64,000 nt of DNA. Source: Aureimonas phyllosphaerae. GTDB taxonomy: Bacteria; Pseudomonadota; Alphaproteobacteria; Rhizobiales; Rhizobiaceae. Shown here in pieces: positions 30,338-51,343 of this stretch; position 1 is the stretch's first letter, and each line of letters begins with the position of its first letter. Under the pieces are notes generated by a model that saw only the letters and a list, made by a program, of their open reading frames with translations, was not told the DNA's origin and searched no databases. Both the position numbers and the translations under genes were made by a program. The stretch is from contig NZ_FOOA01000020.1 in NCBI RefSeq assembly GCF_900113065.1, positions 1-64,000 on the forward strand, in the 5' to 3' direction.

Positions 30338-30727
30338 ACCGCACCTCCCGTACGATCCTGGCTCGAAACGTCACCGACTCGCTGAGCGAACCGGCCTCCC
30401 CACGTTTCGATTTTTGACATTTGTCGCGAAGGTTATGTCGAATGTCAATTCGACTCGGGTGTTGGCGACATGTTTTCGCCGAGCTGGCAGCGGGCGGTCG
30501 GTGTCAGCCGAACGACGTCCGGTGCAAGCCGTCGGGCGACCTGCGAAACGCACCGTGCCCTTCGATTGCAGCCGACGAGGCCCGTCCAAGGATGTCCGAT
30601 GGCGGAGGGCTTGGCACGGCGAAACAGGATTCTGCCGAGAAGCTCCGGACCGACGCCGCTTGCGGGCCGACCATCGGCCGCGCGCTCAAACGGCGGTGCT
30701 GTGCGCCAGGCGTTTTCCGGGCGTGCG
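30338..30727. other. Intergenic region upstream of the sugar ABC operon
   Basis: A 390-base gap. Its left part (about 30405-30455) is AT-rich and has the inverted repeat listed at 30414-30448. The remainder up to the metallophosphoesterase stop shows no convincing gene on either strand; a reading frame that is open across it lacks a start, a ribosome site and recognisable protein character. Confidence 0.5.
30414..30448 (-). promoter_or_regulatory. Inverted repeat, operator/promoter candidate for the sugar ABC operon
   Basis: Arms TTGACATTTGTC (30414-30425) and GTCGAATGTCAA (30437-30448) match in 10 of 12 positions, with an 11-base spacer, 77-111 bases before the first permease ATG. The outer arm also supplies a perfect TTGACA -35 hexamer on the minus strand (30448-30443), so a bound repressor would block the promoter. 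No LacI- or DeoR-type regulator gene is close by. Confidence 0.5.
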
Positions 30728-31690: not shown

Positions 31691-32098
31691 GCGAACCCAC
31701 GCCAACCGGGAGAAACGATGCGGGCAGGACCATGCCCCGGCGACCTTCTAGAACGGCGGGGCGGCGTGTGGCCAGACGCGATGACGCGGTCGGACGAGAT
31801 GGGGCGCGGCGGCAGCTCGGGTCTGCCGACCTCAGCCGGCGCTCCGGGCCGGCCGCCGGGGTTGTCGACGCCGATTGCGCCAGCCGACGCCGCGATGGGC
31901 TATCGAAACGAACGGCCGGATCCGTCGCCTCGTCCCGGGGGGGGGCGGGGCCGGAGCGTCGGCGGACAGGCTTCTCGAGATGCCCATCCGTTCGGACGGG
32001 ATTGGAGACAGGTGCCGACCGGCCGAAAACTCGTATCGATCCTTTATGCGGTTGGGACGACATTCCGCCCATCGAAACAACGGGAGCGAGCTCCTTCG
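31691..32098. other. Intergenic region between the phosphoesterase and DapA-like genes
   Basis: About 400 bases between divergent genes. It includes a run of nine G residues (31937-31945), then C and four more G, with more G-pairs following, which could form a G-quadruplex. The last 90 bases before the DapA-like ATG are AT-richer and probably hold its promoter. No gene is visible. Confidence 0.5.
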
Positions 32099-33046
32099 AT
32101 GGGTTCCGCATTCTCCGGCGTGATGACCTCACTGATCACGCCCTTCAAGTCCGACTTCGATTCCGACGTCGGCCTGTTCACCGAAGTGGACATGTTCCGC
32201 GTCGCCGCGCTCACGCGCTGGCAGGCCCGCAGCGGCGTATCGGCCGTCGCGGTCGCCGGCTGGGCGGGCGAGGGCTCCAACCTCAGCCGCGCCGAGCGCA
32301 TCGAGGTGATCGAGGCGGCCGTATCGGCAAAGGGGCGGATGTCCATTCTCGCCCATGTCGGCACGCCGAGCACGGCCGCTTCGATCGCGCTCGCCTATGA
32401 TGCCGAGAGGACGGGCGCGGACGGCCTCGTCCTCGTCATGCCCTTCTACAACAAGCCCTCGTTCGCCGGGATCCAGGCGCACGTCCAGGCGGTCGCGTCC
32501 GCGACGGAGCTGCCGCTGTTCCTCGAGTTCGACGAGGCCGCCACCAAGGTTCACCTGTCGTCATGCCAGATGGCGGAACTGACCAAGATCGCCAACGTCG
32601 CGGCGATCATCGACCATTCCGCCAACCCCTTGCATGTCGAGTGCATGGCAAGGGCCCGCGACGGTGTCGCCTTCCTGGCAGGACACGAGCCGACGGCAGC
32701 GGCCAGCGGCCTTCTCGGAGCGGACGGCCTGTTCAGCGCGGTCGCGAACGTCGCGCCGACGCTGGTCGTCGGTCTGTGGGATGCGATCCGGGGCAACGAC
32801 GGCGCCCTGGCGCGCGAGTTCCAGTCCCGCCTTCGCCCGCTCGTCGATCTCGTCGAGGCCGAGGGCGTCGCGGCCTTGAAGGAACTGCTGCAAGAGAGCG
32901 TCGGGTGCGAGACGACCGTCCGGTTGCCGCTTCACACCCTGTGCCGGGACGCGCGCCGTCAGGCGGCGTGCGTCAGGGACACGATGGAGGCGATCCCGCC
33001 GCGCGTTCCCATGCTGCATGTGGCCGGCCTGGAGGCCGCCCGATGA
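32099..33046 (+). CDS. DapA-family (dihydrodipicolinate synthase-like) protein without Schiff-base lysine
   Basis: A 315-residue TIM-barrel protein that follows the DapA/N-acetylneuraminate lyase family along its length: VMTSLITPFKSD, AVAGWAGEGSNLSRAERIEV, GADGLVLVMPFYNKPS, and a late LAGHEPTAAASGLLGADG. The catalytic positions are changed. The family GTTGE loop is GWAGE (54-58), the proton-relay Tyr aligns with E143, and the Schiff-base Lys aligns with I171 in NVAAIIDHSAN. An aldolase working through a Schiff base is therefore unlikely; it could be a different lyase, a binding protein or a regulator. The start has GGGAGCG about 12 bases upstream. A 4-base overlap couples it to the next small gene. 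Confidence 0.8.
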   Translation: MGSAFSGVMTSLITPFKSDFDSDVGLFTEVDMFRVAALTRWQARSGVSAVAVAGWAGEGSNLSRAERIEVIEAAVSAKGRMSILAHVGTPSTAASIALAYDAERTGADGLVLVMPFYNKPSFAGIQAHVQAVASATELPLFLEFDEAATKVHLSSCQMAELTKIANVAAIIDHSANPLHVECMARARDGVAFLAGHEPTAAASGLLGADGLFSAVANVAPTLVVGLWDAIRGNDGALAREFQSRLRPLVDLVEAEGVAALKELLQESVGCETTVRLPLHTLCRDARRQAACVRDTMEAIPPRVPMLHVAGLEAAR

Positions 33047-37762: not shown

Positions 37763-38674
37763 TCAAGGCGCGAGCATCAGCAGCCGCTGGCGAACCAGGG
37801 CCGCCGTCGGCGACAGCGTTCGTCCTCGCCGCTGCACGAGACAGATCGCGCGGTGGACCACCGGTGCGGTCAGCGGGCGCGTGACGATCCCTTCCGTGTC
37901 GAACGCCTTGAGCGCGAGTTCCGGCAGGGCCGTGACGCCGAGCCCCGCCGCGACGAGCGCGCCGGCCGAGGCGAGATGCGAGACCTCGAACGCCGGCACC
38001 ACCGCGCAGCCCGCGGATGCGAACCCTTCGTCCGTCAGCTGGCGCACCGAGGTCAGGCTTCTCATGGCGACGACGGGATGCGTCGCCAGATCGGCCCATG
38101 AGAGATCCGGCAGGCTGGCTAGCGCATGGCGAGCGGACAGGACGGCCACGAAGCGATCCGTCGTCAGGGGTTCGAAGACGAGGTCGGGCAATCGCCGCGA
38201 CGGTTCGACGGCGATGCCGAAATCAACTTCGCCCTGAGCCACCGCGCCTGTGACCCCGTCGAGCAGCGTATCGATGATCGACAGCCGGATCTCGGGGTCG
38301 TCGCGGTGAAGCCGTGCGAAGAGCGGCGGCAGGATGGCCGAGGCGATCGAGGGCAGGGCGGCGATCGCGACATGGCCGCCGATCGCCGACAGCGACTGCG
38401 TGATCTCGTCCAGCGAGGTCGTGAGGTCGTGGATCACGCGCCGGGCGATCGGCAGCAGCGCCTCGCCCTGCGGCGTCAGGGCCACCGACCGGCTCGTCCG
38501 GTCGAAAAGCCTCGCTCCAATCCGCTGTTCGATGCGCGCGACCGCCCGGCTGACCGCTGGCTGCGACAGAGCGAAGTGATGGGCGACCGCCCGGAAACTG
38601 CCGGTCTCGACGAGAACCAGGAAGACCTGAAGCTCGAAGGGCGAGAGATCGATGCGCTTCATGCATCGATGCAT
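37763..38674 (-). CDS. LysR-family transcriptional regulator of the CitMHS/AtuA genes
   Basis: A LysR regulator of 303 residues (or 299 from the ATG at 38662). The HTH region reads FELQVFLVLVETGSFRAVAH, then FALSQPAVSRAVARIEQRIG; the effector domain follows with VAIAALPSIASAILPPLF. Both candidate starts lie inside a 20-base perfect palindrome. It is divergent from the CitMHS carrier and most likely controls it and the AtuA genes in response to the transported organic acid, together with autoregulation. Confidence 0.9.
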   Translation of the reverse strand: MHRCMKRIDLSPFELQVFLVLVETGSFRAVAHHFALSQPAVSRAVARIEQRIGARLFDRTSRSVALTPQGEALLPIARRVIHDLTTSLDEITQSLSAIGGHVAIAALPSIASAILPPLFARLHRDDPEIRLSIIDTLLDGVTGAVAQGEVDFGIAVEPSRRLPDLVFEPLTTDRFVAVLSARHALASLPDLSWADLATHPVVAMRSLTSVRQLTDEGFASAGCAVVPAFEVSHLASAGALVAAGLGVTALPELALKAFDTEGIVTRPLTAPVVHRAICLVQRRGRTLSPTAALVRQRLLMLAP

Positions 38675-38677
38675 GAA
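38658..38677. promoter_or_regulatory. 20-bp perfect palindrome over the LysR start codon
   Basis: TTCATGCATCGATGCATGAA is identical to its reverse complement. It covers codons 1-5 of the LysR gene, including both possible ATGs, and lies 76 bases from the CitMHS ATG. It may be a binding site through which the regulator blocks its own expression and tunes the divergent promoter; a hairpin in the mRNA that hides the start is another possibility. Confidence 0.55.
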
Positions 38678-38753
38678 CCGAATTCAATTTACGCACAAGT
38701 CGGCGGGTGCGAACTTGCCGCCCGGCCTCGGGAGAAGGCCTTGGGAGGAATTC
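38675..38753. promoter_or_regulatory. Divergent LysR / CitMHS promoter
   Basis: A 79-base spacer whose left part (CGAATTCAATTTACG at about 38679-38693) is AT-rich. It ends with GGGAGGA directly before the carrier ATG at 38754. It should hold the promoters of both genes next to the palindrome at 38658-38677. Confidence 0.5.
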
Positions 38754-40043
38754 ATGCTTGCCGTGCTCGGCTTTGGCACGATCGCCGTTTTCCTGGCGAT
38801 CACCTTGAGCGGACGCCTGTCCGTGCTCGTCGGCCTCGTTCTCGTGCCGCTCGCGGCGGGGCTTCTCGGCGGCTTCGGCGCCGACCTCGGCAAGATGATG
38901 ATGGACGGGATCGTGCGGGTCGCGCCGACCGGCATCATGATCATGTTCGCGGTCCTGTATTTCGGCCTGATGATGGGCACCGGGATCTTCAAGCCGATGA
39001 TCCTCGGCCTCGTGTCGCTGGTGCGCGGCGATCCGGTGCGGCTCTGCCTCGTCTCGGCGGCGCTGCCGATGCTGGTCGCTCTCGACGGCGACGGCGCGAC
39101 GACCTTCCTGATCTCGATCACGGCACTCCTGCCGATCCACCGGCACATGCGCATGAACCCGCTGGTGCTGCCGGGCATCGTCGCGCTGGCGGCCGGCACG
39201 ATGAACATCCTGCCCTGGGGCGGACCGACCGCCCGCGCGATGAGCGTCCTCGGCACGAGTTCGCAGGACATCTTCCAGCCCGTGATCCCCGCGATGCTGG
39301 TCGGCCTCGCCTGGGTCTTCCTGGTGGCGGCCTATCTCGGGCTGAAGGAGCGCCGCCGCCTCGGCGTCGCCGACAGCTTCGACGCGGGCGCCCACGTCAC
39401 CGAGACGGCGGAGGACGCGGCGGCACTGCGGCCCCACCTCTTCTGGTTCAACGTCGCGCTGACGCTCGTGCTTCTCGTCATGCTCTTCACGCATGTCCTG
39501 CCGCTCGCCGTGATCTTCATCATCGGTTTCGCGGTGGCGCTTCTCGTGAACTATCCGAGCTGGGAGGCCCAGCGTGAACGGCTGGTGGCGCATGCCGACA
39601 GCGTCGTGACCGTCACCACCATGATCTTCGCCGCCGGCATCTTCACCGGGATCCTCCAGGGGACCGGCATGATCGAGGCGATGGCGACCTCGCTCGTCGC
39701 CGTGGTGCCGAACGGCATGGCGCCCTACCTGCCGCAGGTCGTCGCCGTCGCGAGCATGCCGCTCAGCCTCGCCTTCACGCCGGACGCCTTCTACTTCGGA
39801 ATGCTGCCGGTCTTCGCCCAGACCGCCGAGGCGCTCGGCCACGAGGGCATCGAGGTCGGACGCGCCGCCATCCTCGGGCAGATGACGACGGGCTTCCCGC
39901 TCAGCCCGCTCACCGCCTCGACCTTCATCCTCATCGGCCTGTCGGGCGTCACGCTTGGCGCGCACCAGCGCTTCATCTTCAAATGGGCCTTCGCGACGAC
40001 GCTGATCATGGCCGCCGTCGCCTGGATCACCGGAGCCATCTGA
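38754..40043 (+). CDS. CitMHS-family citrate/organic-acid carrier
   Basis: A 429-residue inner-membrane carrier of the citrate-Mg2+:H+ / citrate-Ca2+:H+ symporter family with about twelve segments. Conserved blocks are LYFGLMMGTGIFKPMI, MLVALDGDGATTFLIS, NILPWGGPTARAMSVL and SLAFTPDAFYFGMLP. The ATG at 38754 has GGGAGGA 5 bases upstream. It takes up a di- or tricarboxylate, probably as a metal complex. The AtuA-type genes that follow (1-base overlap) suggest a substrate other than plain citrate. Confidence 0.92.
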   Translation: MLAVLGFGTIAVFLAITLSGRLSVLVGLVLVPLAAGLLGGFGADLGKMMMDGIVRVAPTGIMIMFAVLYFGLMMGTGIFKPMILGLVSLVRGDPVRLCLVSAALPMLVALDGDGATTFLISITALLPIHRHMRMNPLVLPGIVALAAGTMNILPWGGPTARAMSVLGTSSQDIFQPVIPAMLVGLAWVFLVAAYLGLKERRRLGVADSFDAGAHVTETAEDAAALRPHLFWFNVALTLVLLVMLFTHVLPLAVIFIIGFAVALLVNYPSWEAQRERLVAHADSVVTVTTMIFAAGIFTGILQGTGMIEAMATSLVAVVPNGMAPYLPQVVAVASMPLSLAFTPDAFYFGMLPVFAQTAEALGHEGIEVGRAAILGQMTTGFPLSPLTASTFILIGLSGVTLGAHQRFIFKWAFATTLIMAAVAWITGAI

Positions 40044-41437
40044 TGTCGGACGCAGACCTTCCTTCCCTCGTGCGGATCGGCTGCGCATCCGGCTTTGCCG
40101 ACGATCGCTCGGATGCCGGCCTCCCCGTCGTGCGCGAACTGGCACGCCACGAAGGGCCCCGCTTCCTGATCTACGAGACGCTGGCCGAGCGCACGCTGGC
40201 GCTGGCGCAGCTCCGGCGCCGGCAGGACCCGGAGGCCGGCGCGAGCGAGGCGATCGAGCGCTTCCTTCGGCCCGTGCTGGCCGAATGCCTGGCGTCGGGC
40301 ATCCGTATCGTCGGCAATTTCGGGGCCGCCAACCCCCGGGGCGGGGCGCGGATCATCCGCCGCCTCGCGGCCGAACTCGGCCACCCCGACATCCGGATCG
40401 CCGTGGTCGAGGGCGACGACATCTCCGATGCCTTCTCGCACGCGGAACTGAGGGCGCGCGAGATGGACAGCGACCTCCTCGCCGATGCCGCCGGGATCGT
40501 CTCGGCCAACGCCTATATCGGCGCCGAAGCGATCGGCGAGGGCCTCGACGCCGGTGCCGACGTCGTCGTCGCAGGACGCGTCGCCGATCCGTCGCTGGCG
40601 CTCGGGCCGCTGATCCATGCGTTCGGCTGGCGGCTCGACGACTGGGATCGCCTGGCTGCCGGAACGCTCGCCGGCCACCTCCTCGAATGCGGCTCGCAGG
40701 TCACCGGCGGATACTTCGCCGACCCCGGGATGGCGGACGTCCCGAACCTTGCCGAGGTCGGCTATCCCATCGCGGAAATTCTCTCCGACGGCGCGATCAC
40801 GCTGACCAAGCCGCCGGGCACGGGTGGGCGCGTCGACCGCGAGACCGTCGCCGAACAGCTTCTCTACGAGATCCACGATCCCGCGGCCTATCTCACCCCC
40901 GACGTCGTCCTCGACCTCACCGAGGTCGGGATCGAGGTCGTCGGCAAGGACCGGGTGAGGGTGGTCGGCGCGCGCGGGCGGCCGAGGCCCGAGCGGCTGA
41001 AGGCGACGGTGTGCGTCGATGGCGGGCATCTGGCGGAAGGCGAGATTTCCTATGCCGGCGCGAACGCCGCGCGCCGGGCAGCTCTGGCGATCGCCGTCGT
41101 GCAGGCGCGGATGGCGCGGCGCTGGCCGGGTCTTCTCGTGCGCGCCGATGCGATCGGTGTCGCCAGCCTCTTTCACCCGGCCGGTCCCGCGGCGCTCGGA
41201 CCGGCCCTTGCGGTTTCGCCTTGCGAGGACGTCCGCGTCCGCCTCGCCGCCGCCTCGACCGATCGAGCCGGACCGGAGGAACTCCTGCACGAGGTTCGGG
41301 CGCTCTACTGCGCGGGTCCGGGGGGCGGCGCGGGCATCCGCACGCGCCTCACCCACCGTGTCGCCAGCGCGTCTTGCCTCGTGGAGCGCGAGCGCGTCGA
41401 GCCCCGCATGGAGATCCTGGAGCCGCACCATGGCTGA
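40043..41437 (+). CDS. AtuA family protein (acyclic terpene utilisation, DUF1446)
   Basis: A 464-residue cytoplasmic protein of the AtuA/DUF1446 family: RIGCASGFADDRSDAG at the N-terminus, IRIVGNFGAANPRGGARII, DVVVAGRVADPSLALGPLIH, GHLLECGSQVTGGYFADPG and PIAEILSDGAITLTKPPGTGG. AtuA was named for citronellol/geranyl-CoA breakdown in Pseudomonas, yet most homologues are found without terpene genes, often with organic-acid carriers as here. Biochemical function is not established. It overlaps the carrier gene by 1 base and the next gene by 8. Confidence 0.88.
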   Translation: MSDADLPSLVRIGCASGFADDRSDAGLPVVRELARHEGPRFLIYETLAERTLALAQLRRRQDPEAGASEAIERFLRPVLAECLASGIRIVGNFGAANPRGGARIIRRLAAELGHPDIRIAVVEGDDISDAFSHAELRAREMDSDLLADAAGIVSANAYIGAEAIGEGLDAGADVVVAGRVADPSLALGPLIHAFGWRLDDWDRLAAGTLAGHLLECGSQVTGGYFADPGMADVPNLAEVGYPIAEILSDGAITLTKPPGTGGRVDRETVAEQLLYEIHDPAAYLTPDVVLDLTEVGIEVVGKDRVRVVGARGRPRPERLKATVCVDGGHLAEGEISYAGANAARRAALAIAVVQARMARRWPGLLVRADAIGVASLFHPAGPAALGPALAVSPCEDVRVRLAAASTDRAGPEELLHEVRALYCAGPGGGAGIRTRLTHRVASASCLVERERVEPRMEILEPHHG

Positions 41438-41825: not shown

Positions 41826-43148
41826 TCATGGCTGTGTCGTGCTGGACGGCGCCTCGCACCAGGCCTCGATGATCGACGCCGTCACATCGATCGCGCGGGA
41901 GAGATCCGCGAGGTCGACCCATTCGCCGACCCCCTTCGCCATGGTGAGATCGCCGCATCTCGGACCGTAGCCGACCGTCGGGATGGAGCGCTGGACGAGC
42001 GGGTTGCGGATGTCGCTCGATGTATGGAGCGGGTTCACCCTCGGATTCGCGCCGGCCTCCAGCAACATCGCCCGGACCAGTTGGTAGAGGGGGCCGTCGA
42101 CGTCGGTTTCGGCGGCCGAAACCCCGGAGAGCCATGTCACGTCGGGCCGCGTGGCCTCGGGCCATCGAAGGCCCTGCCAAGCGCCCGATACGGCATCCTC
42201 CACCACCGCCTTCGCCTCCGCCAGGGTCTCACCCGGCACCAGCGACAGAACCGCTGCGATCCGGCACGAGGCGGGGATGCGCGCGGAGGCGCCGGTCGAC
42301 CCGGCCTCGATCCGCGTCACCAGGAGGTTGGTGGAGCGGCCGACCGCCGCCTGCAGGAGCGGGTGCTGGACGCTTTTCCCTCGCGCGCGGTCGAGCGAGG
42401 CGAGGGCGTCGAGGACGGCCCGCATCGCATCGAGCGGGTGATGGGCCAGATGGGCGAAAGCCGCATGCGAAGGCTCGTCCGTCTGCGGGAGACGCCCCGC
42501 GATCTCCACCGCGAACTCGATCTGCCCCGGTGCGAAGGCCTTGATCTCGTCGAGGCCGGCGCCCGATTCCGCCGGGTGCAGGTAGATCGCCGCATCCGCC
42601 GAAAGGCCGGCGGCGAGCGCTGCCGCGATCCCGCGACGATGCCGCTTCGAGGGCGATGAAACGAGGGTGACCGGCGCGGGCGGGGTCCAGCCGCGGGCGT
42701 GCAATCGAGCGAGCGAGGCCACCATGATCATGATTCCGGCGATGTCGTCGGCAACGCCCCATCCGATCAGCCGGCCGTTCTCGACGCGTGGCTCGCGGGG
42801 ATCATGCGACCAGCCGTGATCCGCCTGGAAGGCTTCCACGTCGGGATGGGCGAAAAGGAGAAGGCTTCTGGCACCGTCCGCGGCCGTCGACGGGGCGATC
42901 CGCCCGATCAGGCATGTCTGTTCGCCGGCGGCGGTATCCACCCCGGAGGCGAACTCCTCGATCAGCGGAACGGCCTGCGGATCGTAGACGAGAGGTTCGA
43001 CCGCGCAGCCCACGGCTTCCATCCGCTCGGCGACGAGACCGGTGAAGGCCGACTGGTCGCCCGCCGCCGCGACAAGCCGCATCAGGAGGTCGAGTTCCGC
43101 CGGGGAAAGGGGGATGTCGCGGGAGGCCGCGGCTTCAAGGGTCGTCAT
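41826..43148 (-). CDS. M20-family metallopeptidase-like protein with non-canonical active site
   Basis: A 440-residue protein with M20/ArgE/DapE architecture: LLLFAHPDVEAF (H101, D103) and RLIGWGVADDIAGIMIM (D135) match the first two metal-ligand motifs, and a dimerisation-domain-like middle part follows. The usual Glu-Glu motif is replaced by TLVSSPSKRHRRGIAAAL (about 161-178), and the last-metal histidine region reads GDLTMAKGVGEW. It may belong to a separate M20 clade with other ligands, such as H170 or H191 in IYLHPAESG, or may not be a peptidase. As last gene of the opine-type operon, amide hydrolysis of an N-acyl amino acid is possible. Confidence 0.82.
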   Translation of the reverse strand: MTTLEAAASRDIPLSPAELDLLMRLVAAAGDQSAFTGLVAERMEAVGCAVEPLVYDPQAVPLIEEFASGVDTAAGEQTCLIGRIAPSTAADGARSLLLFAHPDVEAFQADHGWSHDPREPRVENGRLIGWGVADDIAGIMIMVASLARLHARGWTPPAPVTLVSSPSKRHRRGIAAALAAGLSADAAIYLHPAESGAGLDEIKAFAPGQIEFAVEIAGRLPQTDEPSHAAFAHLAHHPLDAMRAVLDALASLDRARGKSVQHPLLQAAVGRSTNLLVTRIEAGSTGASARIPASCRIAAVLSLVPGETLAEAKAVVEDAVSGAWQGLRWPEATRPDVTWLSGVSAAETDVDGPLYQLVRAMLLEAGANPRVNPLHTSSDIRNPLVQRSIPTVGYGPRCGDLTMAKGVGEWVDLADLSRAIDVTASIIEAWCEAPSSTTQP

Positions 43149-43232: not shown

Positions 43233-43646
43233 TCACGTCAGATGGAAACGGATCGGCTTTGCGCCGGTCCACAAGGTGCCGCGGCCGAGTTCGGCCAGCG
43301 CGTCCAGCTTGTCGATGATCGTCAGGAAATGGTTGCCGGCCAGCGGCCCCGCCTTGGATGCGAAGGCGACCGGGCCGTAGGCGAGAAGGATCTCGGTCTC
43401 CGACACGCCGCCGGGATAAAGGATCATCTGGCCGGGATGGGGATGGCTGGTCGCGTTCTCGTACGGCAGGCCGAAGTCCTTGTCGCCGAGCGGGATCCAG
43501 CAGGCTTCGCCCGACCAGCGCACGTGGATGACGCGTTCGGAATAGGGAAGGAGGTCGCGAAAGGCCGCCACGGTCCGGGGGGCGGCCTCGGTCTCGAAGC
43601 GCGCGGGAAAGGCGTGGCGGTCGATTTCGACGATAAGCTCGCTCAT
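43233..43646 (-). CDS. DUF3830 family protein
   Basis: A 137-residue protein of the DUF3830 family, starting at the ATG at 43646 with AGGACAC upstream. It has a cyclophilin-like feel: FPARFETEAAPRTVAAFRDL, VIHVRWSGEACWIPLGDK, HPGQMILYPGGVSETEILLAYGP (shown here by its core GQMILYPGGVSETEILLAYG) and FASKAGPLAGNHFLTI. Function is unknown. Such genes often accompany amino-acid or dipeptide importers and M20 proteins, as here, so a role in handling the same imported compound is likely. Confidence 0.8.
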   Translation of the reverse strand: MSELIVEIDRHAFPARFETEAAPRTVAAFRDLLPYSERVIHVRWSGEACWIPLGDKDFGLPYENATSHPHPGQMILYPGGVSETEILLAYGPVAFASKAGPLAGNHFLTIIDKLDALAELGRGTLWTGAKPIRFHLT

Positions 43647-43690: not shown

Positions 43691-44419
43691 TCAGTGCCGC
43701 AGGATCTTGCCGAGGAAGGTCTGCGTCCTCGGGTTGGTGATCTCCGAAAAGAAGGCTTCGGTCGGCCGGTCCTCGACGATCTCGCCCTGGTCGATGAAGA
43801 CAACCCGCGTCGCGACGTTTCGGGCAAAGCCCATCTCGTGGGTCACGCACATCATGGTCATGCCTTCGCGGGCGAGGCCGACCATGACGTCGAGCACTTC
43901 GGCGATCATCTCGGGGTCGAGCGCGGAGGTCGGCTCGTCGAAGAGCATGGCCATCGGGTCCATCGCCAAGGCACGCGCGATCGCCACGCGCTGCTGCTGG
44001 CCGCCCGACAACTGGCCGGGATACTTGGCCGCATGGTCGGCGAGCCCCACCCGGTCGAGCAGCGCCATTCCCTTGGCCTTTGCGACGTCGGGCGTGCGCT
44101 GGAGGACCATCTCCTGCGCGATCGTCAGGTTCTCGATGATCGACAGATGCGGGAACAGCTCGAAGTTCTGGAACACCATGCCGATCCGCGTGCGAAGGTT
44201 CGGCAGGTCGGTCTTCGGGTCGCCGACCTCGATGCCCTGGACCCGGATCGAGCCCTCGTCGAAGCCCTCGAGCCCGTTGACGCACTTGATGAGGGTCGAC
44301 TTGCCCGACCCCGACGGGCCGCAGACGACGACCACCTCCCCCTTGGCGACATGGGTGCTGCAGTTCTTGAGGACCTGGAACTTCCCGTAGAACTTGTTGA
44401 CGCCTTGGATCTCGATCAT
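43691..44419 (-). CDS. Amino-acid ABC transporter ATP-binding protein (GlnQ type)
   Basis: A 242-residue ATPase: Walker A GPSGSGKST, signature [15 protein letters not shown], Walker B AMLFDEPTSALDPE, H-loop CVTHEMGF. All sites are intact. It overlaps the stop of the large fusion gene upstream by 4 bases (ATGA), so the transport ATPase is translationally linked to the dehydrogenase. It serves the binding protein and the single permease at the head of the same operon. Confidence 0.93.
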   Translation of the reverse strand: MIEIQGVNKFYGKFQVLKNCSTHVAKGEVVVVCGPSGSGKSTLIKCVNGLEGFDEGSIRVQGIEVGDPKTDLPNLRTRIGMVFQNFELFPHLSIIENLTIAQEMVLQRTPDVAKAKGMALLDRVGLADHAAKYPGQLSGGQQQRVAIARALAMDPMAMLFDEPTSALDPEMIAEVLDVMVGLAREGMTMMCVTHEMGFARNVATRVVFIDQGEIVEDRPTEAFFSEITNPRTQTFLGKILRH

Positions 44420-47325
44420 GGGCGGCCTTTCGCGAAGCGCGTGACGGAGAAGGGGCCGATGTCGTGCGTCGCGGGCCTTCCGGCCACGAGATCGGCGGTG
44501 ATGCGGCCGACGAGCGGCCCGAGCGTGTAGCCGTTGGATGTGACGGCGTTGAAGAAGCCGGGGGCGTCGGGGTGCTCGCCGAGGATCGGCGCGCCGTCGA
44601 TGTTGATGTTCATCGCCGCCCAGCTCCGGATGACATGCGCCTTACGAAGCGCGGGCACGACGTGCTGCGCCACCCAGAGGTTGCCCTCCAGGCTGTCGAA
44701 AAGCGGGCGCGGATGCTGGTGCACCGGATCGAGCCCGGCGGTCCAGCCACCCCCGATGATGATGTTGCCGTTCGCCGCCTGCTTCAGCGTCAGGTGGCGG
44801 CCGGCATGTGCGACGAGGTAGGACACGAGCGGGGCGACGGCTTCGGTCACGACCATCTGCAGCGGGGCGCCGAAGACCGGCACGTCCAGCCCGAGCATGG
44901 CGCCGATGCGCGAGGCGAAGGCGCCCGCCGCGTTGACCACCCGGCGCGCCCGGATCGGGCCGCGCGAGGTGTCGACGGCATAGCCGTCGCCCTCGCGCCG
45001 GATCGCCCGGATCTCGGCGTTCGTGTAGAGGCGCGCGCCGGCTGCAAGGGCCGCCGACAGGACGCCTTCGGTGGCCACGAGCGGATTGATCTTGCCCTCC
45101 TGCGGGCAGAACGCGGCGCCGAGGAAGCGCTCCGACAAGGCGGGCTCGCGGCGGCGGAGTTCCGCTGCGTCGATTAGGTCGCAGCGAACCCCTCGCGAGC
45201 GCTCGACCGCGGTCTTGGCTTCCAGGAAACGCAGATGCTCCTCGGTCTCGGCGACCATCAGGCCGCCGGTGATCTTGATTTCGAAGTCCGCCGCCAGCTC
45301 TCGTTCCAGCTGGCGCCACAGGTCGATCGAGTCCCGCTGCAGCGGGAGGGTTCGCGCAGCCGGCCCGCCGCCGGCTTCCGCGCGTGCGCCGTAGTCGAAG
45401 GAGAGGAGCTGCGCATGCAGGCTTCCCGCATTGCCGCCCGAGGCGCCGGAATTGGGAACGCCGCGCTCGACCACGACGACGTCCTCGCCCGCGCGGGCGA
45501 GGAACAGCGCGGTGGACAGTCCGGCGATCCCGGCGCCGATCACCAGCGTTCCGACGGAAAGCGGCGGCAGCGGTTCGGCGTCGGGAGCCGCCCGGTCGGG
45601 CAGGAGCGCGCGGCGATGGCCGCCCCATTCCGGCTTCTCCAGCGCGAGCGCGGCGAGGGGGATCGGCCGGAGCGGCATCTGCGCGGCGAGCTTCGGCACG
45701 ACCTCGCGGGCCTCGGGATCGCGCGCGGCGGCCCGCGCGAGGACCGGGCCGCAATAGCGGCCCTGGCAGCGGCCCATGCCGGCGCGGGTCATGCGCTTGA
45801 GGCTGGCGGTGTCGCCATGGGGCCCCTTGGCCAGCGCCTGCGAGACGGCCGCAAAGCTCACCGCTTCGCATCGGCAGGCCAGCGTGTCCGCGGATGGCGG
45901 CGGAGCGTCCGACGCGTCGAAAAGGGTCCAGAGCGCAGCCTGGAAGGTCTCGTGCCGGGCGAGGCGCCGGCGGTCGGCCCGCTCCTCGTCCGCCTCGATC
46001 GCCGTGTCTGAGCCGAGCTCGCGCGACGCGGCGCGGCCCGCGAGGCGACCCTGCGCCAGCGCCACGTGGGCGCCGGCGAAGCGGCCGGCCTCGCCGATCA
46101 CGAAGACGTCGGGCTGGGACGTCCGGCCGGTCTCGTCGCGCTCGACCTCCAGCCGGCCGCCGCGATCGCGATGGGCGCAGCCGAGGAGCCGCGAGAGTTC
46201 GTTCGCGGAGGCAAAGCCGTTGCCGACGACCACGGCGTCGACCGCGACGCACCGCTCGCCCTCGGGGGTCGCGTAGACGGCAGCCTCGACCCGCCCGTCG
46301 CCCTCGACCCGCACGAGTTGCGAGGACCAGGAAAGGGGGATGCTCGACGCGCGCAGCCGGGCCATCTGCCGCATGCCGGCAAGCGCGAGCGCCGGGTGGC
46401 TGATGACGAGGCGACCCGCCTCGCGCGGTCGCGTGTGCGGGGCCGGGGCCCGGTCGAGAACCGCGGCGACCGTCGATCCTGCAGCGGCAAGCTCCAGGGC
46501 CACCTGAAGGTTGAGAGGACCGTTGCCCACGACGAGGACGCGCTGCCCGGCGGACACGCCGTAGGAGCGGATCAGCGTCTGCGCCCCGCCGGTGGTCATC
46601 ACGCCCGGCAGGGTCCAGCCGGGAAGCGCCAGCGGCGTTTCGAAGGCGCCGGTGGCGACCACGAGCACGCGTGGGCGCCACCGGGCCGCCTCGCTCCGGC
46701 ATAGGGTTCCGAGAACGAGGTGGCCGTCCTTGTCCCGCTCGGCGCCCCAGACGAGCGTCTCGCCATGGATGGCGACGCCGAGGCCGCGCACCCGCTCGAT
46801 CAGCGTCGCGCCCTCGCGCATCTGCGGGTCGCGCGCCGCCATGCCCTGGCGCTGCTTGTAGAACTGCCCGCCGGGGCCGGGACGCTCGTCGAGCACCGTC
46901 ACGCTCGCCCCGTGCCGTGCCGCGGCCTCCGCGGCCGCAAGGCCCGCCGGCCCGGCGCCCACGACCAGAACGTCGACGCTCCGTTCGAGGATCTGCGTCG
47001 GCAGTCCGGCGAGATCGGCAAGGTGAGGATCGAGGAGGTCGATCCGCACGGGATGGCTCCGGACGTCTTGGCCGTCCTCCGACCTGGTGAGACAGGCGCG
47101 CTGCCCCGCACGTCCGTTCACCACCACGAGGCACTCGTGGCAGACGCCCATGCCGCAGTAGTGGCCGCGCGGGCGTCCGTCCTTGCCGATGGACTGCGCC
47201 TTGAGGCCCGCCGCGATCAGCGTCGCCGCAAGGCTCTCGCCCGGCACGGCCGGGAGAGCGCGGCCATCGAACCGGATGGTCGCCGTCGCGCCGACGCGGG
47301 AGCTGGGGGCGGGCGCCATCGGCAT
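44416..47325 (-). CDS. Single-chain HcnA-HcnB-HcnC-type (opine/D-amino acid) dehydrogenase fusion
   Basis: A 969-residue flavo-iron-sulfur protein that joins what are normally three subunits. Residues about 10-95: Fer2_4 2Fe-2S domain (C57, C62, C65, C78; HYCGMGVCHEC). About 110-460: FAD/NAD(P) oxidoreductase with DVLVVGAGPAGLAAAEAAA. About 480-560: BFD-like 2Fe-2S domain (LACRCEA near 484 and GRCQGRYCGP near 518-525). About 590-969: D-amino-acid-oxidase (DAO) domain with GTLVIGAGIAGLSTALFLAR and SNGYTLGPLVG. The separate homologues are HcnABC (glycine to cyanide), octopine/nopaline dehydrogenases and heterotrimeric D-hydroxyproline dehydrogenase. It should oxidise a D-amino or imino acid or opine. 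The gene lies 1 base after the DapA-family gene and overlaps the ATPase gene. Confidence 0.88.
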   Translation of the reverse strand: MPMAPAPSSRVGATATIRFDGRALPAVPGESLAATLIAAGLKAQSIGKDGRPRGHYCGMGVCHECLVVVNGRAGQRACLTRSEDGQDVRSHPVRIDLLDPHLADLAGLPTQILERSVDVLVVGAGPAGLAAAEAAARHGASVTVLDERPGPGGQFYKQRQGMAARDPQMREGATLIERVRGLGVAIHGETLVWGAERDKDGHLVLGTLCRSEAARWRPRVLVVATGAFETPLALPGWTLPGVMTTGGAQTLIRSYGVSAGQRVLVVGNGPLNLQVALELAAAGSTVAAVLDRAPAPHTRPREAGRLVISHPALALAGMRQMARLRASSIPLSWSSQLVRVEGDGRVEAAVYATPEGERCVAVDAVVVGNGFASANELSRLLGCAHRDRGGRLEVERDETGRTSQPDVFVIGEAGRFAGAHVALAQGRLAGRAASRELGSDTAIEADEERADRRRLARHETFQAALWTLFDASDAPPPSADTLACRCEAVSFAAVSQALAKGPHGDTASLKRMTRAGMGRCQGRYCGPVLARAAARDPEAREVVPKLAAQMPLRPIPLAALALEKPEWGGHRRALLPDRAAPDAEPLPPLSVGTLVIGAGIAGLSTALFLARAGEDVVVVERGVPNSGASGGNAGSLHAQLLSFDYGARAEAGGGPAARTLPLQRDSIDLWRQLERELAADFEIKITGGLMVAETEEHLRFLEAKTAVERSRGVRCDLIDAAELRRREPALSERFLGAAFCPQEGKINPLVATEGVLSAALAAGARLYTNAEIRAIRREGDGYAVDTSRGPIRARRVVNAAGAFASRIGAMLGLDVPVFGAPLQMVVTEAVAPLVSYLVAHAGRHLTLKQAANGNIIIGGGWTAGLDPVHQHPRPLFDSLEGNLWVAQHVVPALRKAHVIRSWAAMNINIDGAPILGEHPDAPGFFNAVTSNGYTLGPLVGRITADLVAGRPATHDIGPFSVTRFAKGRP

Positions 47326-47326
47326 G

Positions 47327-48223
47327 TCAGGCGGCGAGCGCCCGGGCGAGGCCGAAGTGGTCGACCAGCGCCTTCATGCGGGCGTCGTCGGCCGCCGGCA
47401 GCGGCAGGCGGGGCGGGCGCGGTTCGCCGACCGCAAAGCCCATGTGGCCGAGGAGCGCCTTGGTCCCGCCGACATAGAGATGCCCGCCGACCGCCTCGAT
47501 CAGCGGCAGCCATTCGAGATAGAGCCTGTGCGCCTCGGGAACGCGGTTCTCGTCCTTCACCAGCTCGAAGATGCGCGCCATCTGCCGCGGGGCGACGTTG
47601 GACGCCACGGCGACCCAGCCTTCCGCCCCTTCCACGAAGGACTCAAAGCCCAGGATGCCGCCGAAGACCGTCATGTTGCGGCCGGCCTTGCGGATGATGT
47701 CACGCACGCGCGTCACCTCCAGCGTCGACTCCTTGATGTAGTCGCAGCCCTCGATCTCGGCGATCCGCGCGACGAGATCGGGCTTGAGGTCCACGTTGGC
47801 CGTCGCCGGATTGTTGTAGACCATGATCGGCAGCTTGGTCGCCGCGGCGATCGTGCGGTAGTGATGGACGAGCTCGTCGTCGGTCGGCGTCGAGTAGAAG
47901 GGCGGAATGATCATCACCCCGTCGGCCCCGAGTTCCTCGGCCTGTCGCGTAAGGCGGACGGCCTCGCGCGTGTCCTCGGCGCCCGTGCCGATCAGGACGG
48001 GGACCCGGCCGGCGGCCGTCTCGATCACGGTCCTCGCGACCTCGACGCGCTCCTCCTCGGACAGGGACAGGAACTCGCCGGTGGAGCCGAGCGGGATCAG
48101 GCCGTGGATGCCTTCCCGGACCTGCCAGTCGGTGAAGGCTTTGAGCGTTTCGACGTCGAGCCGTCCGGCCTTGTCGAACGGCGTGATCATGACGGTGTAG
48201 ACACCGCGAAAGGTCTTCTGCAT
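47327..48223 (-). CDS. DapA-family lyase/deaminase (dihydrodipicolinate synthase-like)
   Basis: A 298-residue TIM-barrel enzyme with an intact active site: GSTGE (46-50), the proton-relay Tyr136 in MVYNNPA, and the Schiff-base Lys164 in CDYIKEST. The family includes dihydrodipicolinate synthase, N-acetylneuraminate lyase and pyrroline-4-hydroxy-2-carboxylate deaminase. As it sits directly before a D-imino-acid-type dehydrogenase in an importer operon, it is probably catabolic. The deaminase of the hydroxyproline pathway is the closest known precedent, but no hydroxyproline epimerase gene is present. Confidence 0.88.
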   Translation of the reverse strand: MQKTFRGVYTVMITPFDKAGRLDVETLKAFTDWQVREGIHGLIPLGSTGEFLSLSEEERVEVARTVIETAAGRVPVLIGTGAEDTREAVRLTRQAEELGADGVMIIPPFYSTPTDDELVHHYRTIAAATKLPIMVYNNPATANVDLKPDLVARIAEIEGCDYIKESTLEVTRVRDIIRKAGRNMTVFGGILGFESFVEGAEGWVAVASNVAPRQMARIFELVKDENRVPEAHRLYLEWLPLIEAVGGHLYVGGTKALLGHMGFAVGEPRPPRLPLPAADDARMKALVDHFGLARALAA

Positions 48224-48249: not shown

Positions 48250-48942
48250 TCAGCGCTGCTCGCTCGCGGCAAGCGGCTGGTCGGAGCGTCCGAAGCGCCG
48301 CTCGATCCGGCGCTGGACGAGGTCCCAGAGCGTGGTCAGGAGGAGGTAGTAGATCGCCGCGACGGTGAAGAGTTCGAGCACCTCGAAGCGCTCCTGGATG
48401 AGGACCTGCGTGCGGCGCAGGAGTTCCTCCATCGAGATCACCGAAGTGACCGAGGTCGTCTTGAGGAGGCCGTTCACCGAGTTGCCGAGCGGCGGCACGA
48501 TGATCTTCAACGCCTGCGGAAGGACGATCGAACGCATGATCTGCGGCTCGCGCATGCCGAGCGCGCGCGCGGCCCGCACCTGGCCCTTCGGCACCGCCTC
48601 GATGCCGGCGCGGATGATCTCGGCGAGATAGGCCGCCTCGTTGAGCGACAGGCCGATCAGCGCGGCTTGCCAGACGTTGAAGCGGATGCCGAGTTCGGGC
48701 AGGGCGGTGTAGATGACGATGAGCTGGACGAGCAGCGGCGTTCCGCGGAACAGCCAGATATAGGCGCCCGCCAAGCCCGAGAGGATGCGCGACGACGAGC
48801 GCCGCATCAGGGCGAGGCCGAAGCCGAGCACGAGGCCGGCGAGGATGGCCACGACCGTCAGCCAGAGCGTCGTGAAGACGCCCTGGAGGATGAACGGGTT
48901 CACGAGGTAGCCGAAGAAGCCCGACCAGTTCCAGTTCAGCAT
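48250..48942 (-). CDS. Amino-acid ABC transporter permease (HisM/GlnP type)
   Basis: A 230-residue permease with about five membrane segments: LFRGTPLLVQLIVIYTALPE, EAAYLAEIIRAGIEAVPKG, EAA loop RAARALGMREPQIMRSIVLP, and KTTSVTSVISMEELL. It is the only permease gene in this operon, so the channel is probably a homodimer. Confidence 0.91.
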   Translation of the reverse strand: MLNWNWSGFFGYLVNPFILQGVFTTLWLTVVAILAGLVLGFGLALMRRSSSRILSGLAGAYIWLFRGTPLLVQLIVIYTALPELGIRFNVWQAALIGLSLNEAAYLAEIIRAGIEAVPKGQVRAARALGMREPQIMRSIVLPQALKIIVPPLGNSVNGLLKTTSVTSVISMEELLRRTQVLIQERFEVLELFTVAAIYYLLLTTLWDLVQRRIERRFGRSDQPLAASEQR

Positions 48943-48994: not shown

Positions 48995-49822
48995 TCAGCC
49001 CGCCGGACCCTTCACGGCGAGCGCGCCGGACACCGGCTCGACACCGTACTCGGCAAAGAGCTTGTCGAAGGAGCCGTCGGCCTTCATGTCCGCGAGCACC
49101 TTCGCCACCGCGTCGGCCAGCGGGCGGCTCTTCATGGCGAGGGCCACCGGCGTCGGGCCGATCCCGTGCAGCGCGCGGTGGAACTGGCCGCGCTTGGCGT
49201 ATTCCTCGGCCACGCCGTCGATCGAGACCATCGCGTCGACCTGGCCGGCGCGCAGCGCCTGATAGGCGAGGGCGAAATTGTCGAAGGTCCGCACTGTCGC
49301 GCCCTCGAGGCCCTTCTCGCGCAGCTGCGCGTCGATCGCCTTGGCCTGCTTCTCCTCGAAGCCGCCGATCTCGACGCCGATCGAGCGGCCGGCGAGGTCG
49401 TCGAGCGACTTGACCTCGACGCCGGAATTGTTGGCCGTCGAGATGCTGATCGCCTGGTTCTCGTAGGGGATCATCTGCATCATCGCCGCGCGCTCGGGCG
49501 TGTAGAAGATGCCGGTGTTGATGAGGTCCCAGCGGCCCGACTGGAGCCCGGGCACCATCGCCGAGAACTCGATGCGGATGTATGCGGGCTCAAGGCACAG
49601 CCGCTTGGCGATCTCCTTGCCGAGTTCGACGCGCATGCCCTTCAGCTCGCCCGACGCATCCACGAACTGCAGCGGCGGCAGGGTCGGGTTCGTCGACATC
49701 ACCAGCTTGCCCGGCTGAATGAGTTCGCTGTCGGCGACGGCGGGCTTGCAGTCCTGCGCCTGTGCCGTCGTGGCGAGGAGGAGGGCGCCGAGCGCGATCG
49801 TCAAGGGAAACCGGGTGGGCAT
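48995..49822 (-). CDS. Amino-acid ABC transporter substrate-binding protein
   Basis: A 275-residue SBP_bac_3 protein from the ATG at 49822 (AGAGG upstream). The signal peptide ends near TTAQAQDCKP (residue 23). The mature part has MRVELGKEIAKRLCLEP, MVPGLQSGRWDLINTGIFYT, DDLAGRSIGVEIGGFEE and AGQVDAMVSIDGVAEEYA. It is the first gene of the operon. A GntR-type operator candidate lies 42-55 bases before its start. Confidence 0.91.
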   Translation of the reverse strand: MPTRFPLTIALGALLLATTAQAQDCKPAVADSELIQPGKLVMSTNPTLPPLQFVDASGELKGMRVELGKEIAKRLCLEPAYIRIEFSAMVPGLQSGRWDLINTGIFYTPERAAMMQMIPYENQAISISTANNSGVEVKSLDDLAGRSIGVEIGGFEEKQAKAIDAQLREKGLEGATVRTFDNFALAYQALRAGQVDAMVSIDGVAEEYAKRGQFHRALHGIGPTPVALAMKSRPLADAVAKVLADMKADGSFDKLFAEYGVEPVSGALAVKGPAG

Positions 49823-49863
49823 GGTGAAACCTCTTGGCAAGATCGGGAGCAAAATCGCATGCT

Positions 49864-49925: not shown

Positions 49926-50576
49926 TCAGAAGCGTTCGAGAACGCGTCGGCGGATGCCGGACAAATGACGCCGCATCGCCCCCGCGGCCTGGTCGGGCGC
50001 GCGAAGCGACAGCGCGGTCAGGATCTCCCGGTGCTCGCCGTTGTCGACATGCAGCGTCGCCCGCCATTTGGTCTGGCGTTCGTAGAGTGTGGTGTAGCGG
50101 CGCATGTCCTGGAGGTACCGCGTCATGAACGGGTTGCCGCAATGGGTCGCGATCAGCGCGTGGAGATCGTCGTCGAACCGGAGGAGATCGGTCTCCTGGA
50201 GATCGTCCGTCGTCTCCAGCCTCGCCATCTCGGCCTCCAGCCGGGCGACGTCCGCGGCTGCAACGGCCGTGGCCGCGAGCGACGCGGCGGCGGGCTCGAC
50301 GAGCGCGCGCATCTCGAGGGTCTGCAGGTAGTCCTGGAGGCTGAGGGCGCGTACCGCCAGGATGCCGGTGTTGCCGCGCACCAGGAGGCCCTCGCCGGCC
50401 AGCCGGCCGAGGGCGTCGCGCAGGGGCGAGCGCGAGACGCCGATCTCCTCGGCGATACGGCGCTCCTGGATGGGCGTGCCCGCCGCCAGGCGCGCGTCGA
50501 GAATGTCCGACAGAATCTGCCGATAGGCTTTCTCGGAGAGGTTGGTGGGTTCCGCCGGGGCCGGGGGCTTCGCCAT
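49926..50576 (-). CDS. GntR-family (FCD domain) transcriptional regulator, proximal
   Basis: About 216 residues from the ATG at 50576; a GTG at 50603 would add nine. The winged helix has RRIAEEIGVSRSPLRDALGR, followed by LAGEGLLVRGN. The all-helical FCD domain shows DDDLHALIATHCGNPFM, with the Asp/His metal-ligand pattern, and a later HREILTAL. It is encoded head-on to a paralogue and just upstream of the importer operon, transcribed in the same direction. It is the likely repressor of both promoters that carry the TGG-ATACCA dyad. Confidence 0.91.
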   Translation of the reverse strand: MAKPPAPAEPTNLSEKAYRQILSDILDARLAAGTPIQERRIAEEIGVSRSPLRDALGRLAGEGLLVRGNTGILAVRALSLQDYLQTLEMRALVEPAAASLAATAVAAADVARLEAEMARLETTDDLQETDLLRFDDDLHALIATHCGNPFMTRYLQDMRRYTTLYERQTKWRATLHVDNGEHREILTALSLRAPDQAAGAMRRHLSGIRRRVLERF

Positions 50577-50611
50577 CTGGAGCTCGACTGTTTGCTTCCG
50601 CACGGCGGAGG

Positions 50612-50668: not shown

Positions 50669-51343
50669 ATGAGTTCAAACGAAGGAGCCGCACCGACCGC
50701 GGCCGCCGATCGCAGCCCGAACCTTGCCAATCTCGCCTACCGCTCGGTCGCCGATATGATCCGCAGCCGCCGCCTTCGCGGCGGCGACGTGATCGTCGAG
50801 GCGAAGCTCGCCGCGACGCTCGGCGTATCGCGAACGCCTATGCGCGAGGCGCTCCAGAGACTGGAGGGCGAGGGACTCGTCCACAAGGGCGAGGGGCGCA
50901 ACTACGTCGTGCGCCGCGTCGATCTCGGCGAATATCTCCAGAGCCTGCGGCTGCGGCTCCTGATCGAGCCCGAGGCGGCGGTGCTGGCGCTCGACAACAT
51001 CCCCCGCCGCACGCTGCTCGCCGTGCGCCTCGAGATCCTGGAACTCCTCGACGCCAAGACCTACCACACCGATCAGCACTGGTTCTCGGACGACCACCTG
51101 CACGGGATGATCATCGACCATTGCGGCAACGCGGTCATGGCGCGCGTCCTGCGCGACCTGCGGGCCGCCACGCGGCTCTTCGAGATCGACCAGCTCAAGG
51201 AGCGGCTGATCCCGGACTCCTCGGAGCACCTCCAGATCATCGAGGCGATCCAGGCCTCGGACGCCGAGGCCACGCGGGAGAGCGTCGCCCAGCACATCCG
51301 CAGCCTCATCGGGTTCGCCATGACGGCCTTCCAGCTGAAATAA
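50669..51343 (+). CDS. GntR-family (FCD domain) transcriptional regulator, distal
   Basis: A 224-residue paralogue of the divergent neighbour: HTH region EAKLAATLGVSRTPMREALQ, wing GEGLVHKGEGRNYVV, and FCD motif SDDHLHGMIIDHCGNAVMAR that matches DDDLHALIATHCGN of the left gene almost position by position. GAGGCAGTC precedes the ATG. It may regulate the same operon with a different effector, or the genes to its right, where an amidase remnant and an SDR are found. Confidence 0.9.
   Translation: MSSNEGAAPTAAADRSPNLANLAYRSVADMIRSRRLRGGDVIVEAKLAATLGVSRTPMREALQRLEGEGLVHKGEGRNYVVRRVDLGEYLQSLRLRLLIEPEAAVLALDNIPRRTLLAVRLEILELLDAKTYHTDQHWFSDDHLHGMIIDHCGNAVMARVLRDLRAATRLFEIDQLKERLIPDSSEHLQIIEAIQASDAEATRESVAQHIRSLIGFAMTAFQLK

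What the first reader, a model, noticed from the sequence alone, without database searches (positions are those of the whole stretch)
44416..47325. Three-subunit dehydrogenase (HcnA-HcnB-HcnC type) fused into one 969-residue chain
Seen: one uninterrupted frame carries, in order, a Fer2_4 domain (four Cys), an FAD/NAD(P) domain, a BFD-type 2Fe-2S domain and a complete DAO-type FAD domain. Known: HcnABC, opine (octopine/nopaline) dehydrogenases and heterotrimeric D-hydroxyproline dehydrogenases make these as two or three separate subunits. Inferred: a fixed 1:1:1 enzyme with an internal electron path, for which I know no characterised single-chain example.
Basis: partly seen in the sequence, partly recalled or inferred. 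Interest (0 to 1): 0.75.

Follow-up and report, generated by a model that had tools for sequence, protein, structure and literature searches.

The report
One-gene fused amino-acid dehydrogenase
A bacterial enzyme usually built from two or three separate proteins is here made as one continuous protein, and the same one-piece version, beside the same partner genes, turns up in many soil and plant bacteria.

Summary
One uninterrupted 969-residue frame (minus strand, 44416-47325) carries Fer2_4, an FAD/NAD(P) domain, a BFD-type Cys cluster and a complete DAO-type FAD domain. It is not an assembly error: 79 of the 80 named loci kept by one scan (175 confirmed) encode one uninterrupted chain. It is a patchy proteobacterial family. 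AlphaFold gives pTM 0.90; both chains of archaeal L-proline dehydrogenase 1y56 match the fold. The closest split relatives are two-gene systems (gamma-alpha fused, beta separate). EKxEWGGH lies at the joint in 80 of 80 scan loci; EWGGH occurs in 0 of 20 split loci. The operon is conserved: a DHDPS-family gene in 81 of 81 loci, an amino-acid-type ABC transporter, GntR regulators, often a dihydropyrimidinase, M20 hydrolase or DUF3830 gene. Most likely it is a dye-linked amino/imino-acid dehydrogenase in a catabolic pathway I could not match to a described one. D-hydroxyproline is an unlikely substrate: the genome has a separate hydroxyproline-type locus and the DHDPS-family partner lacks the signature seen there. 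The substrate is unknown.

The parts
44416..47325 (-). single-chain gamma-alpha-beta flavin/iron-sulfur dehydrogenase, 969 aa
47056..47283 (-). Fer2_4 domain (gamma part), residues 15-90, four Cys 57/62/65/78
46048..46974 (-). Pyr_redox_2 FAD/NAD(P) domain (alpha part), residues 118-426
45742..45876 (-). BFD-type Cys cluster (alpha part), residues 484-528, Cys 484/486/520/525
   Evidence: (0.4 bits below cut-off)
45616..45639 (-). EKPEWGGH, residues 563-570, motif at the joint of the single chains
   Evidence: 7 of 8 positions invariant in 48 aligned chains; 80 of 80 scan loci; EWGGH in 0 of 20 split loci
44488..45546 (-). DAO domain (beta part), residues 594-946
47327..48223 (-). DHDPS-family partner, 298 aa, one base upstream of the fusion's ATG
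48250..48942 (-). ABC transporter permease, amino-acid type
48995..49852 (-). ABC transporter solute-binding protein, family 3
43691..44419 (-). ABC transporter ATPase, start overlaps the fusion's stop by 4 bases
43236..43625 (-). DUF3830 protein
41826..43148 (-). M20 hydrolase, ArgE/DapE-like
49926..50603 (-). GntR/FCD regulator
50669..51343 (+). GntR/FCD regulator, divergent

Best explanation
The gene is a genuine, conserved single-chain version of the gamma-alpha-beta flavin/iron-sulfur dehydrogenases. Most likely the DAO domain oxidises an imported amino or imino acid; electrons pass from its FAD through an FMN held between the beta and alpha parts to the alpha FAD and the Cys clusters and leave to a membrane carrier. 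The product goes to the adjacent DHDPS-family Schiff-base lyase, which splits or deaminates it. The dihydropyrimidinase and M20 hydrolase found in many of these operons would release the substrate from cyclic or N-acylated precursors. Shown here: single chain, domain order, cofactor motifs, a confident fold, a conserved operon, a conserved joint motif. Inferred from characterised heteromers: cofactors, electron path, dehydrogenase activity. Inferred from gene order alone: the order of reactions. Unknown: substrate and acceptor.
For: Domains and motifs; 79 of 80 loci single-chain; pTM 0.90 and fold matches to 1y56 A (TM by target 0.85) and B (0.88); the motifs agree with those listed for flavin opine, D-hydroxyproline and L-proline dehydrogenases in PMC4575208 (passages and section 22); DHDPS-family gene in 81 of 81 loci, within 500 bases in 76; EKxEWGGH in 80 of 80; solute-binding protein and permease in 79 of 81.
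Against: No assay, substrate or bound cofactor is shown. Fer2_BFD is 0.4 bits below Pfam's cut-off and the second Cys spacing (X33) exceeds the X15-20 printed in PMC4575208. The window's operon lacks the dihydropyrimidinase; an orthologue (77%) lies elsewhere in the genome. The precursor genes vary: among 72 loci with 7 kb on both sides, 18 lack a dihydropyrimidinase and 33 an M20 gene. The model could not be superposed on the 1y56 A-B pair.
Confidence: 0.6

Rival explanations
1. [quoted passage not shown]
For: In the known pathway a gamma-alpha-beta dehydrogenase also works with a DHDPS-family deaminase (PMC6608401 passages). The partner exceeds NCBIfam's dapA cut-off (208.7 of 206.15 bits), and a 298-residue dapA-like deaminase is listed for Streptomyces coelicolor.
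Against: The genome has a separate locus with a proline-racemase/4-hydroxyproline-epimerase gene, a DAO gene and a DHDPS-family gene; that epimerase is 81-85% identical to proteins annotated 4-hydroxyproline epimerase (H45, H52). Against the Paraburkholderia locus L139, whose gene content is hydroxyproline-type (a label from its neighbours, not an assay), the beta part is only 24% and alpha 30% identical. The partner lacks the GSMGDW, NSPYAT and KEFAE motifs seen in three hydroxyproline-type loci (own contig C42, L139, L140). No proline-racemase gene was among the neighbour clusters scanned with Pfam or NCBIfam.
Confidence: 0.08
2. It is an opine-type dehydrogenase that cleaves N-carboxyalkyl amino acids, feeding the DHDPS-family lyase with the oxo acid.
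For: Flavin opine dehydrogenases share the architecture and lie with ABC transporters; type 2 in Burkholderia thailandensis has the C-A-B gene order, the order of this chain (PMC4575208 passages).
Against: A constant DHDPS-family partner and a frequent dihydropyrimidinase are not explained by opines; no characterised opine dehydrogenase sequence was compared here.
Confidence: 0.15
3. It oxidises glycine or a simple N-alkyl glycine (glycine, sarcosine or HCN-synthase-like chemistry).
For: The best PDB sequence match of the DAO part is a glycine oxidase (4ysh), with sarcosine oxidase beta chains next; soxB and ThiO lead in NCBIfam.
Against: All these NCBIfam matches are far below their cut-offs (soxB 120 of 529 bits, ThiO 116 of 251). 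The genome has a separate pair of frames like sarcosine oxidase beta and alpha on contig C28, read from length and similarity only. A DHDPS-family partner has no evident role for such a product.
Confidence: 0.12
4. Assembly or sequencing error joining separate genes.
For: Split relatives with overlapping genes exist.
Against: 79 of 80 named loci have one uninterrupted chain, complete replicons included; the joint carries a motif found in 0 of 20 split loci.
Confidence: 0.005

Closest known systems
Two-gene relatives of unknown function (e.g. Paracoccus aminophilus pAMI4, Roseicitreum pRA01, Antarctobacter pSMS3-1)
   Same: Same domains; alpha 40-43% and beta 35-46% identical; a DHDPS-family gene nearby in several.
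   Different: Beta is a separate gene, overlapping the gamma-alpha gene by 8-14 bases in three annotated cases; no EWGGH motif; no dihydropyrimidinase, DUF3830 or M20 match in 10 loci.
Archaeal dye-linked L-proline dehydrogenase (1y56, Pyrococcus horikoshii)
   Same: Best fold match: chain A TM by target 0.85, chain B 0.88; gamma and alpha in one chain; R-X-W present in its beta chain alignment.
   Different: Two chains instead of one; about 21% and 25% identity.
Heterotrimeric D-hydroxyproline dehydrogenase, flavin opine dehydrogenase and HCN synthase
   Same: Gamma, alpha and beta parts and the motifs listed in PMC4575208.
   Different: Three separate subunits there; a distant match to one hydroxyproline-type locus (alpha 30%, beta 24%). 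HcnABC and opine dehydrogenase sequences were not compared.
Heterotetrameric sarcosine oxidase
   Same: Fer2-FAD alpha part and DAO beta part; soxA and soxB are the leading NCBIfam matches.
   Different: Scores far below the cut-offs (126 of 1164 and 123 of 529 bits); no GCV_T match here; that sarcosine oxidase has four genes and a GCV_T domain is recalled.

Membership tests
Gamma-alpha-beta flavin dehydrogenases (opine / D-hydroxyproline / HCN synthase kind) | two ADP-binding GxGxxG motifs, one in alpha and one in beta | tested here: met
   positions 123 and 597
Gamma-alpha-beta flavin dehydrogenases (opine / D-hydroxyproline / HCN synthase kind) | gamma motif C-X4-C-X2-C-X11-12-C | tested here: met
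   C57, C62, C65, C78
Gamma-alpha-beta flavin dehydrogenases (opine / D-hydroxyproline / HCN synthase kind) | alpha motif C-X-C-X15-20-C-X4-C | tested here: inconclusive
   four Cys present but the spacing is X33; X32 or X33 in 84 of 85 single chains, and X31-X33 in split L131, L132, L136, L137
Gamma-alpha-beta flavin dehydrogenases (opine / D-hydroxyproline / HCN synthase kind) | R-X-W for FMN in beta | tested here: met
   R900-S-W902, both invariant in 48 chains
Gamma-alpha-beta flavin dehydrogenases (opine / D-hydroxyproline / HCN synthase kind) | three separate subunits | tested here: not met
   one chain
Gamma-alpha-beta flavin dehydrogenases (opine / D-hydroxyproline / HCN synthase kind) | 2 FAD + 1 FMN + [2Fe-2S], dye-linked dehydrogenase activity | not testable with these tools
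   needs purified protein
D-hydroxyproline dehydrogenase | hydroxyproline epimerase and Pyr4H2C deaminase in the same gene cluster | tested here: not met
   the genome's epimerase-family gene is on another contig with its own DAO and DHDPS-family genes; the partner lacks the motifs of that group
HCN synthase (HcnABC) | glycine to cyanide; hcnABC sequence similarity | not tested
   no Hcn sequence was compared and no Hcn model appears among the NCBIfam rows shown (best 25 of 119 for the alpha part and of 74 for the beta part shown)
Heterotetrameric sarcosine oxidase alpha | NCBIfam soxA above cut-off | tested here: not met
   125.7 bits of 1164
Partner: true dihydrodipicolinate synthase (DapA) | Schiff-base Lys and catalytic Tyr | tested here: met
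   YIKEST and VYNNP conserved
Partner: true dihydrodipicolinate synthase (DapA) | Arg for aspartate semialdehyde (R138 of E. coli DapA, recalled) | tested here: not met
   NPATANVD where the closest paralogue L106 has IPPRSVVD; yet NCBIfam dapA is exceeded, 208.7 of 206.15 bits

The most novel reading that the evidence does not exclude
A new class of one-chain Fe-S/multi-flavin amino-acid dehydrogenase in which the strictly conserved EKxEWGGH segment at the joint is a working part (interface lock, or element of the electron path or active site), serving an undescribed catabolic pathway (dihydropyrimidinase or M20 hydrolase, then the dehydrogenase, then a DHDPS-family lyase) for an amino or imino acid released from a cyclic ureide or amide; the fusion ended the exchange of beta subunits known in heteromeric kin.
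Probability: 0.3. Interest if true: 0.62.

Novelty: new variant of a known kind. Interest (0 to 1): 0.42.

Why it matters
Heteromeric flavin dehydrogenases of this kind are membrane-associated and hard to purify (PMC4575208 passages). A natural one-chain version fixes the stoichiometry and gives a single target for studying electron transfer between the DAO site and the FAD/Fe-S relay. Three-gene, two-gene and one-gene states coexist among relatives, so the steps by which such a complex was joined can be followed. The conserved operon points to a catabolic pathway in soil- and plant-associated bacteria that I could not match to a described one.

Tried and rejected
Assembly artefact: rejected (79 of 80 loci single). 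D-hydroxyproline dehydrogenase: unlikely.

Apparent alpha-beta joins in genomes G195 and G158: each match holds one stop codon, and a six-frame look found no single frame across both parts; treated as separate genes and left out of the trees. My first, composition-based gene caller found only 71 of 81 loci as single chains; reading the matched frame directly gave 79 of 80 scan loci, so the first figure was a fault of my caller. It also misread several neighbours (artefact frames), so gene counts come from tblastn.

Number of fusions: the alpha tree puts the two-gene rows between two groups of single chains (branches 98/94 and 99/93); the beta tree groups all 30 single chains (98/94). With two long rows (L139, L135) left out, one single-chain clade is not rejected (AU p 0.162). 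I favour one origin because of the shared joint motif; fusion followed by a split, or two fusions, is not excluded.

Substrate from neighbours and papers: tried; no paper holds DUF3830, none holds four of five operon terms, and no substrate could be named. Phages: 10 of 50,697 records with partial matches, none covering 80% of the query.
Full report
OBSERVATION. The frame at 44416-47325 is on the minus strand, ATG to stop, 969 residues. Pfam finds Fer2_4 at 15-90, Pyr_redox_2 at 118-426, Fer2_BFD at 484-528 (0.4 bits below its cut-off) and DAO at 594-946. The cofactor motifs are present: C57-X4-C62-X2-C65-X12-C78, GxGxxG at 123 and 597, C484-X-C486-X33-C520-X4-C525, R900-S-W902. They are the motifs given for flavin opine dehydrogenase, D-hydroxyproline dehydrogenase and archaeal L-proline dehydrogenase in PMC4575208 (abstract, passages and section 22 seen), except that the second Cys spacing is longer than the printed X15-20. 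Split relatives L131, L132, L136 and L137 have X31 to X33; in L135 and L139 the pattern caught an earlier Cys (X27, X22).

NOT AN ARTEFACT. One scan of the GTDB genome collection confirmed 175 stretches and kept the best 80. Of these 80 named loci, 79 encode one uninterrupted chain; L063, a metagenome bin, is broken near its start. Among plasmids 1,172 records match; of the 40 rows shown, 14 hold at least 98% of the query in one piece. The named carriers are mostly Rhizobiales, with Azospirillum, other Alphaproteobacteria and Burkholderiales. Records call the protein 'FAD-dependent oxidoreductase'.

STRUCTURE. AlphaFold2 on 48 aligned chains gave mean pLDDT 89.3 and pTM 0.90; blocks in residues 541-590 are at 68-95. 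Foldseek's first PDB match is 1y56_A (TM by target 0.85, 569 columns); 1y56_B (0.88) is rank 7; sarcosine oxidase chains and glycine oxidase also match.

THE JOINT. Split alpha chains end in segments like APRxPxKPV. The single chains keep this and go on with EKxEWGGH and a variable stretch before the DAO domain. EKxEWGGH is in 80 of 80 scan loci (EKPEWGGH in 76) and in four further single chains, L127-L130. EWGGH occurs in 0 of 20 split loci read in six frames (L015 and L121 overlap, so 19 places). Seven of the eight positions are invariant in 48 chains whose identity to P0001 goes down to 47%; the third is Pro in 44. So strict a conservation speaks against a passive tether; what the segment does is unknown.

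RELATIVES AND ORIGIN. The nearest split relatives have gamma and alpha in one gene and beta in another (alpha 40-43%, beta 35-46% identical). In three annotated cases the beta gene overlaps the end of the gamma-alpha gene by 8, 11 and 14 bases in another frame. Three-gene relatives are more distant (alpha 32-35%, beta 23-31%). Trees (50 alpha rows, 57 beta rows, 30 single chains of those at hand): beta groups all single chains (98/94); alpha places the two-gene rows between two groups of single chains, though one clade is not rejected (AU p 0.162, two long rows left out). With the shared motif I favour one fusion from a two-gene ancestor; a later split or a second fusion is not excluded. No characterised enzyme was in these trees. 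Several two-gene loci have a second beta gene near the DHDPS-family gene, which recalls the Bradyrhizobium opine dehydrogenase cluster where two beta subunits share one alpha-gamma pair. The fusion removes that freedom.

SURROUNDINGS. On the minus strand the window reads GntR, solute-binding protein, permease, DHDPS-family gene, fusion, ATPase, DUF3830, M20 hydrolase, with a divergent GntR gene. Over the window plus 80 loci, tblastn (E 1e-8) finds the DHDPS-family gene in 81 of 81 (within 500 bases in 76), solute-binding protein and permease in 79, GntR in 76, ATPase in 74, dihydropyrimidinase in 56, DUF3830 in 47; matches near 30% to the ATPase may be other transporters. Of 72 loci with at least 7 kb on both sides, 54 have the dihydropyrimidinase, 39 an M20 gene (at 38% identity or more) and one has none of dihydropyrimidinase, M20 and DUF3830. 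One such dihydropyrimidinase (L061) passes NCBIfam's D-hydantoinase model (526.8 of 393.25 bits). The window's genome keeps an orthologue (77%) on another contig, beside an ABC ATPase gene. Ten two-gene loci show no dihydropyrimidinase, DUF3830 or M20 match; in some, glycine dehydrogenase and old-yellow-enzyme genes lie nearby.

FUNCTION. The best reading is a dye-linked amino/imino-acid dehydrogenase in series with the DHDPS-family lyase. The lyase keeps the Schiff-base Lys and catalytic Tyr but not the DapA arginine, nor the motifs of three hydroxyproline-type loci. The genome's 4-hydroxyproline-epimerase-like gene (81-85% identical to annotated ones) lies elsewhere with its own DAO and DHDPS-family genes. 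Substrate, acceptor and reaction order remain inference.

NOVELTY. Paper searches (open-licence PMC full text) showed no description of a single-chain member. PMC4575208 and PMC6608401 were opened in part; all others were seen as listings only. The 2012 paper on D-hydroxyproline dehydrogenase is not held. I rate it a new variant of a known kind.

Noticed in passing
window 30470-33046 (+): 858-residue frame whose only Pfam match (E 1e-5 or better) is a DHDPS domain at 548-831; the first 540 residues are unassigned, so it may be a mis-called start or another fusion.
   Followed up: partly
window 38652-41437 (+): CitMHS-type citrate transporter followed by a large AtuA-family protein, a separate catabolic-looking cluster beside the dehydrogenase operon.
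   Followed up: no
window 43236-43625 (-): DUF3830 recurs in 47 of 81 fusion loci; no paper in the searched library names it.
   Followed up: partly
L127:13852-14715 and L129:3461-4255: Aspartate-dehydrogenase-like gene beside an M20 gene in two single-chain loci, a possible clue to the substrate.
   Followed up: no
L115 (genome contig C43, 518000-534000): The genome's dihydropyrimidinase orthologue sits with a cysteine-desulfurase-like gene and an ABC ATPase 53% identical to the operon's.
   Followed up: partly
L117, L131, L133: Two-gene loci carry two beta genes, one next to the gamma-alpha gene and one near a DHDPS-family gene, like the subunit exchange reported for opine dehydrogenase.
   Followed up: partly
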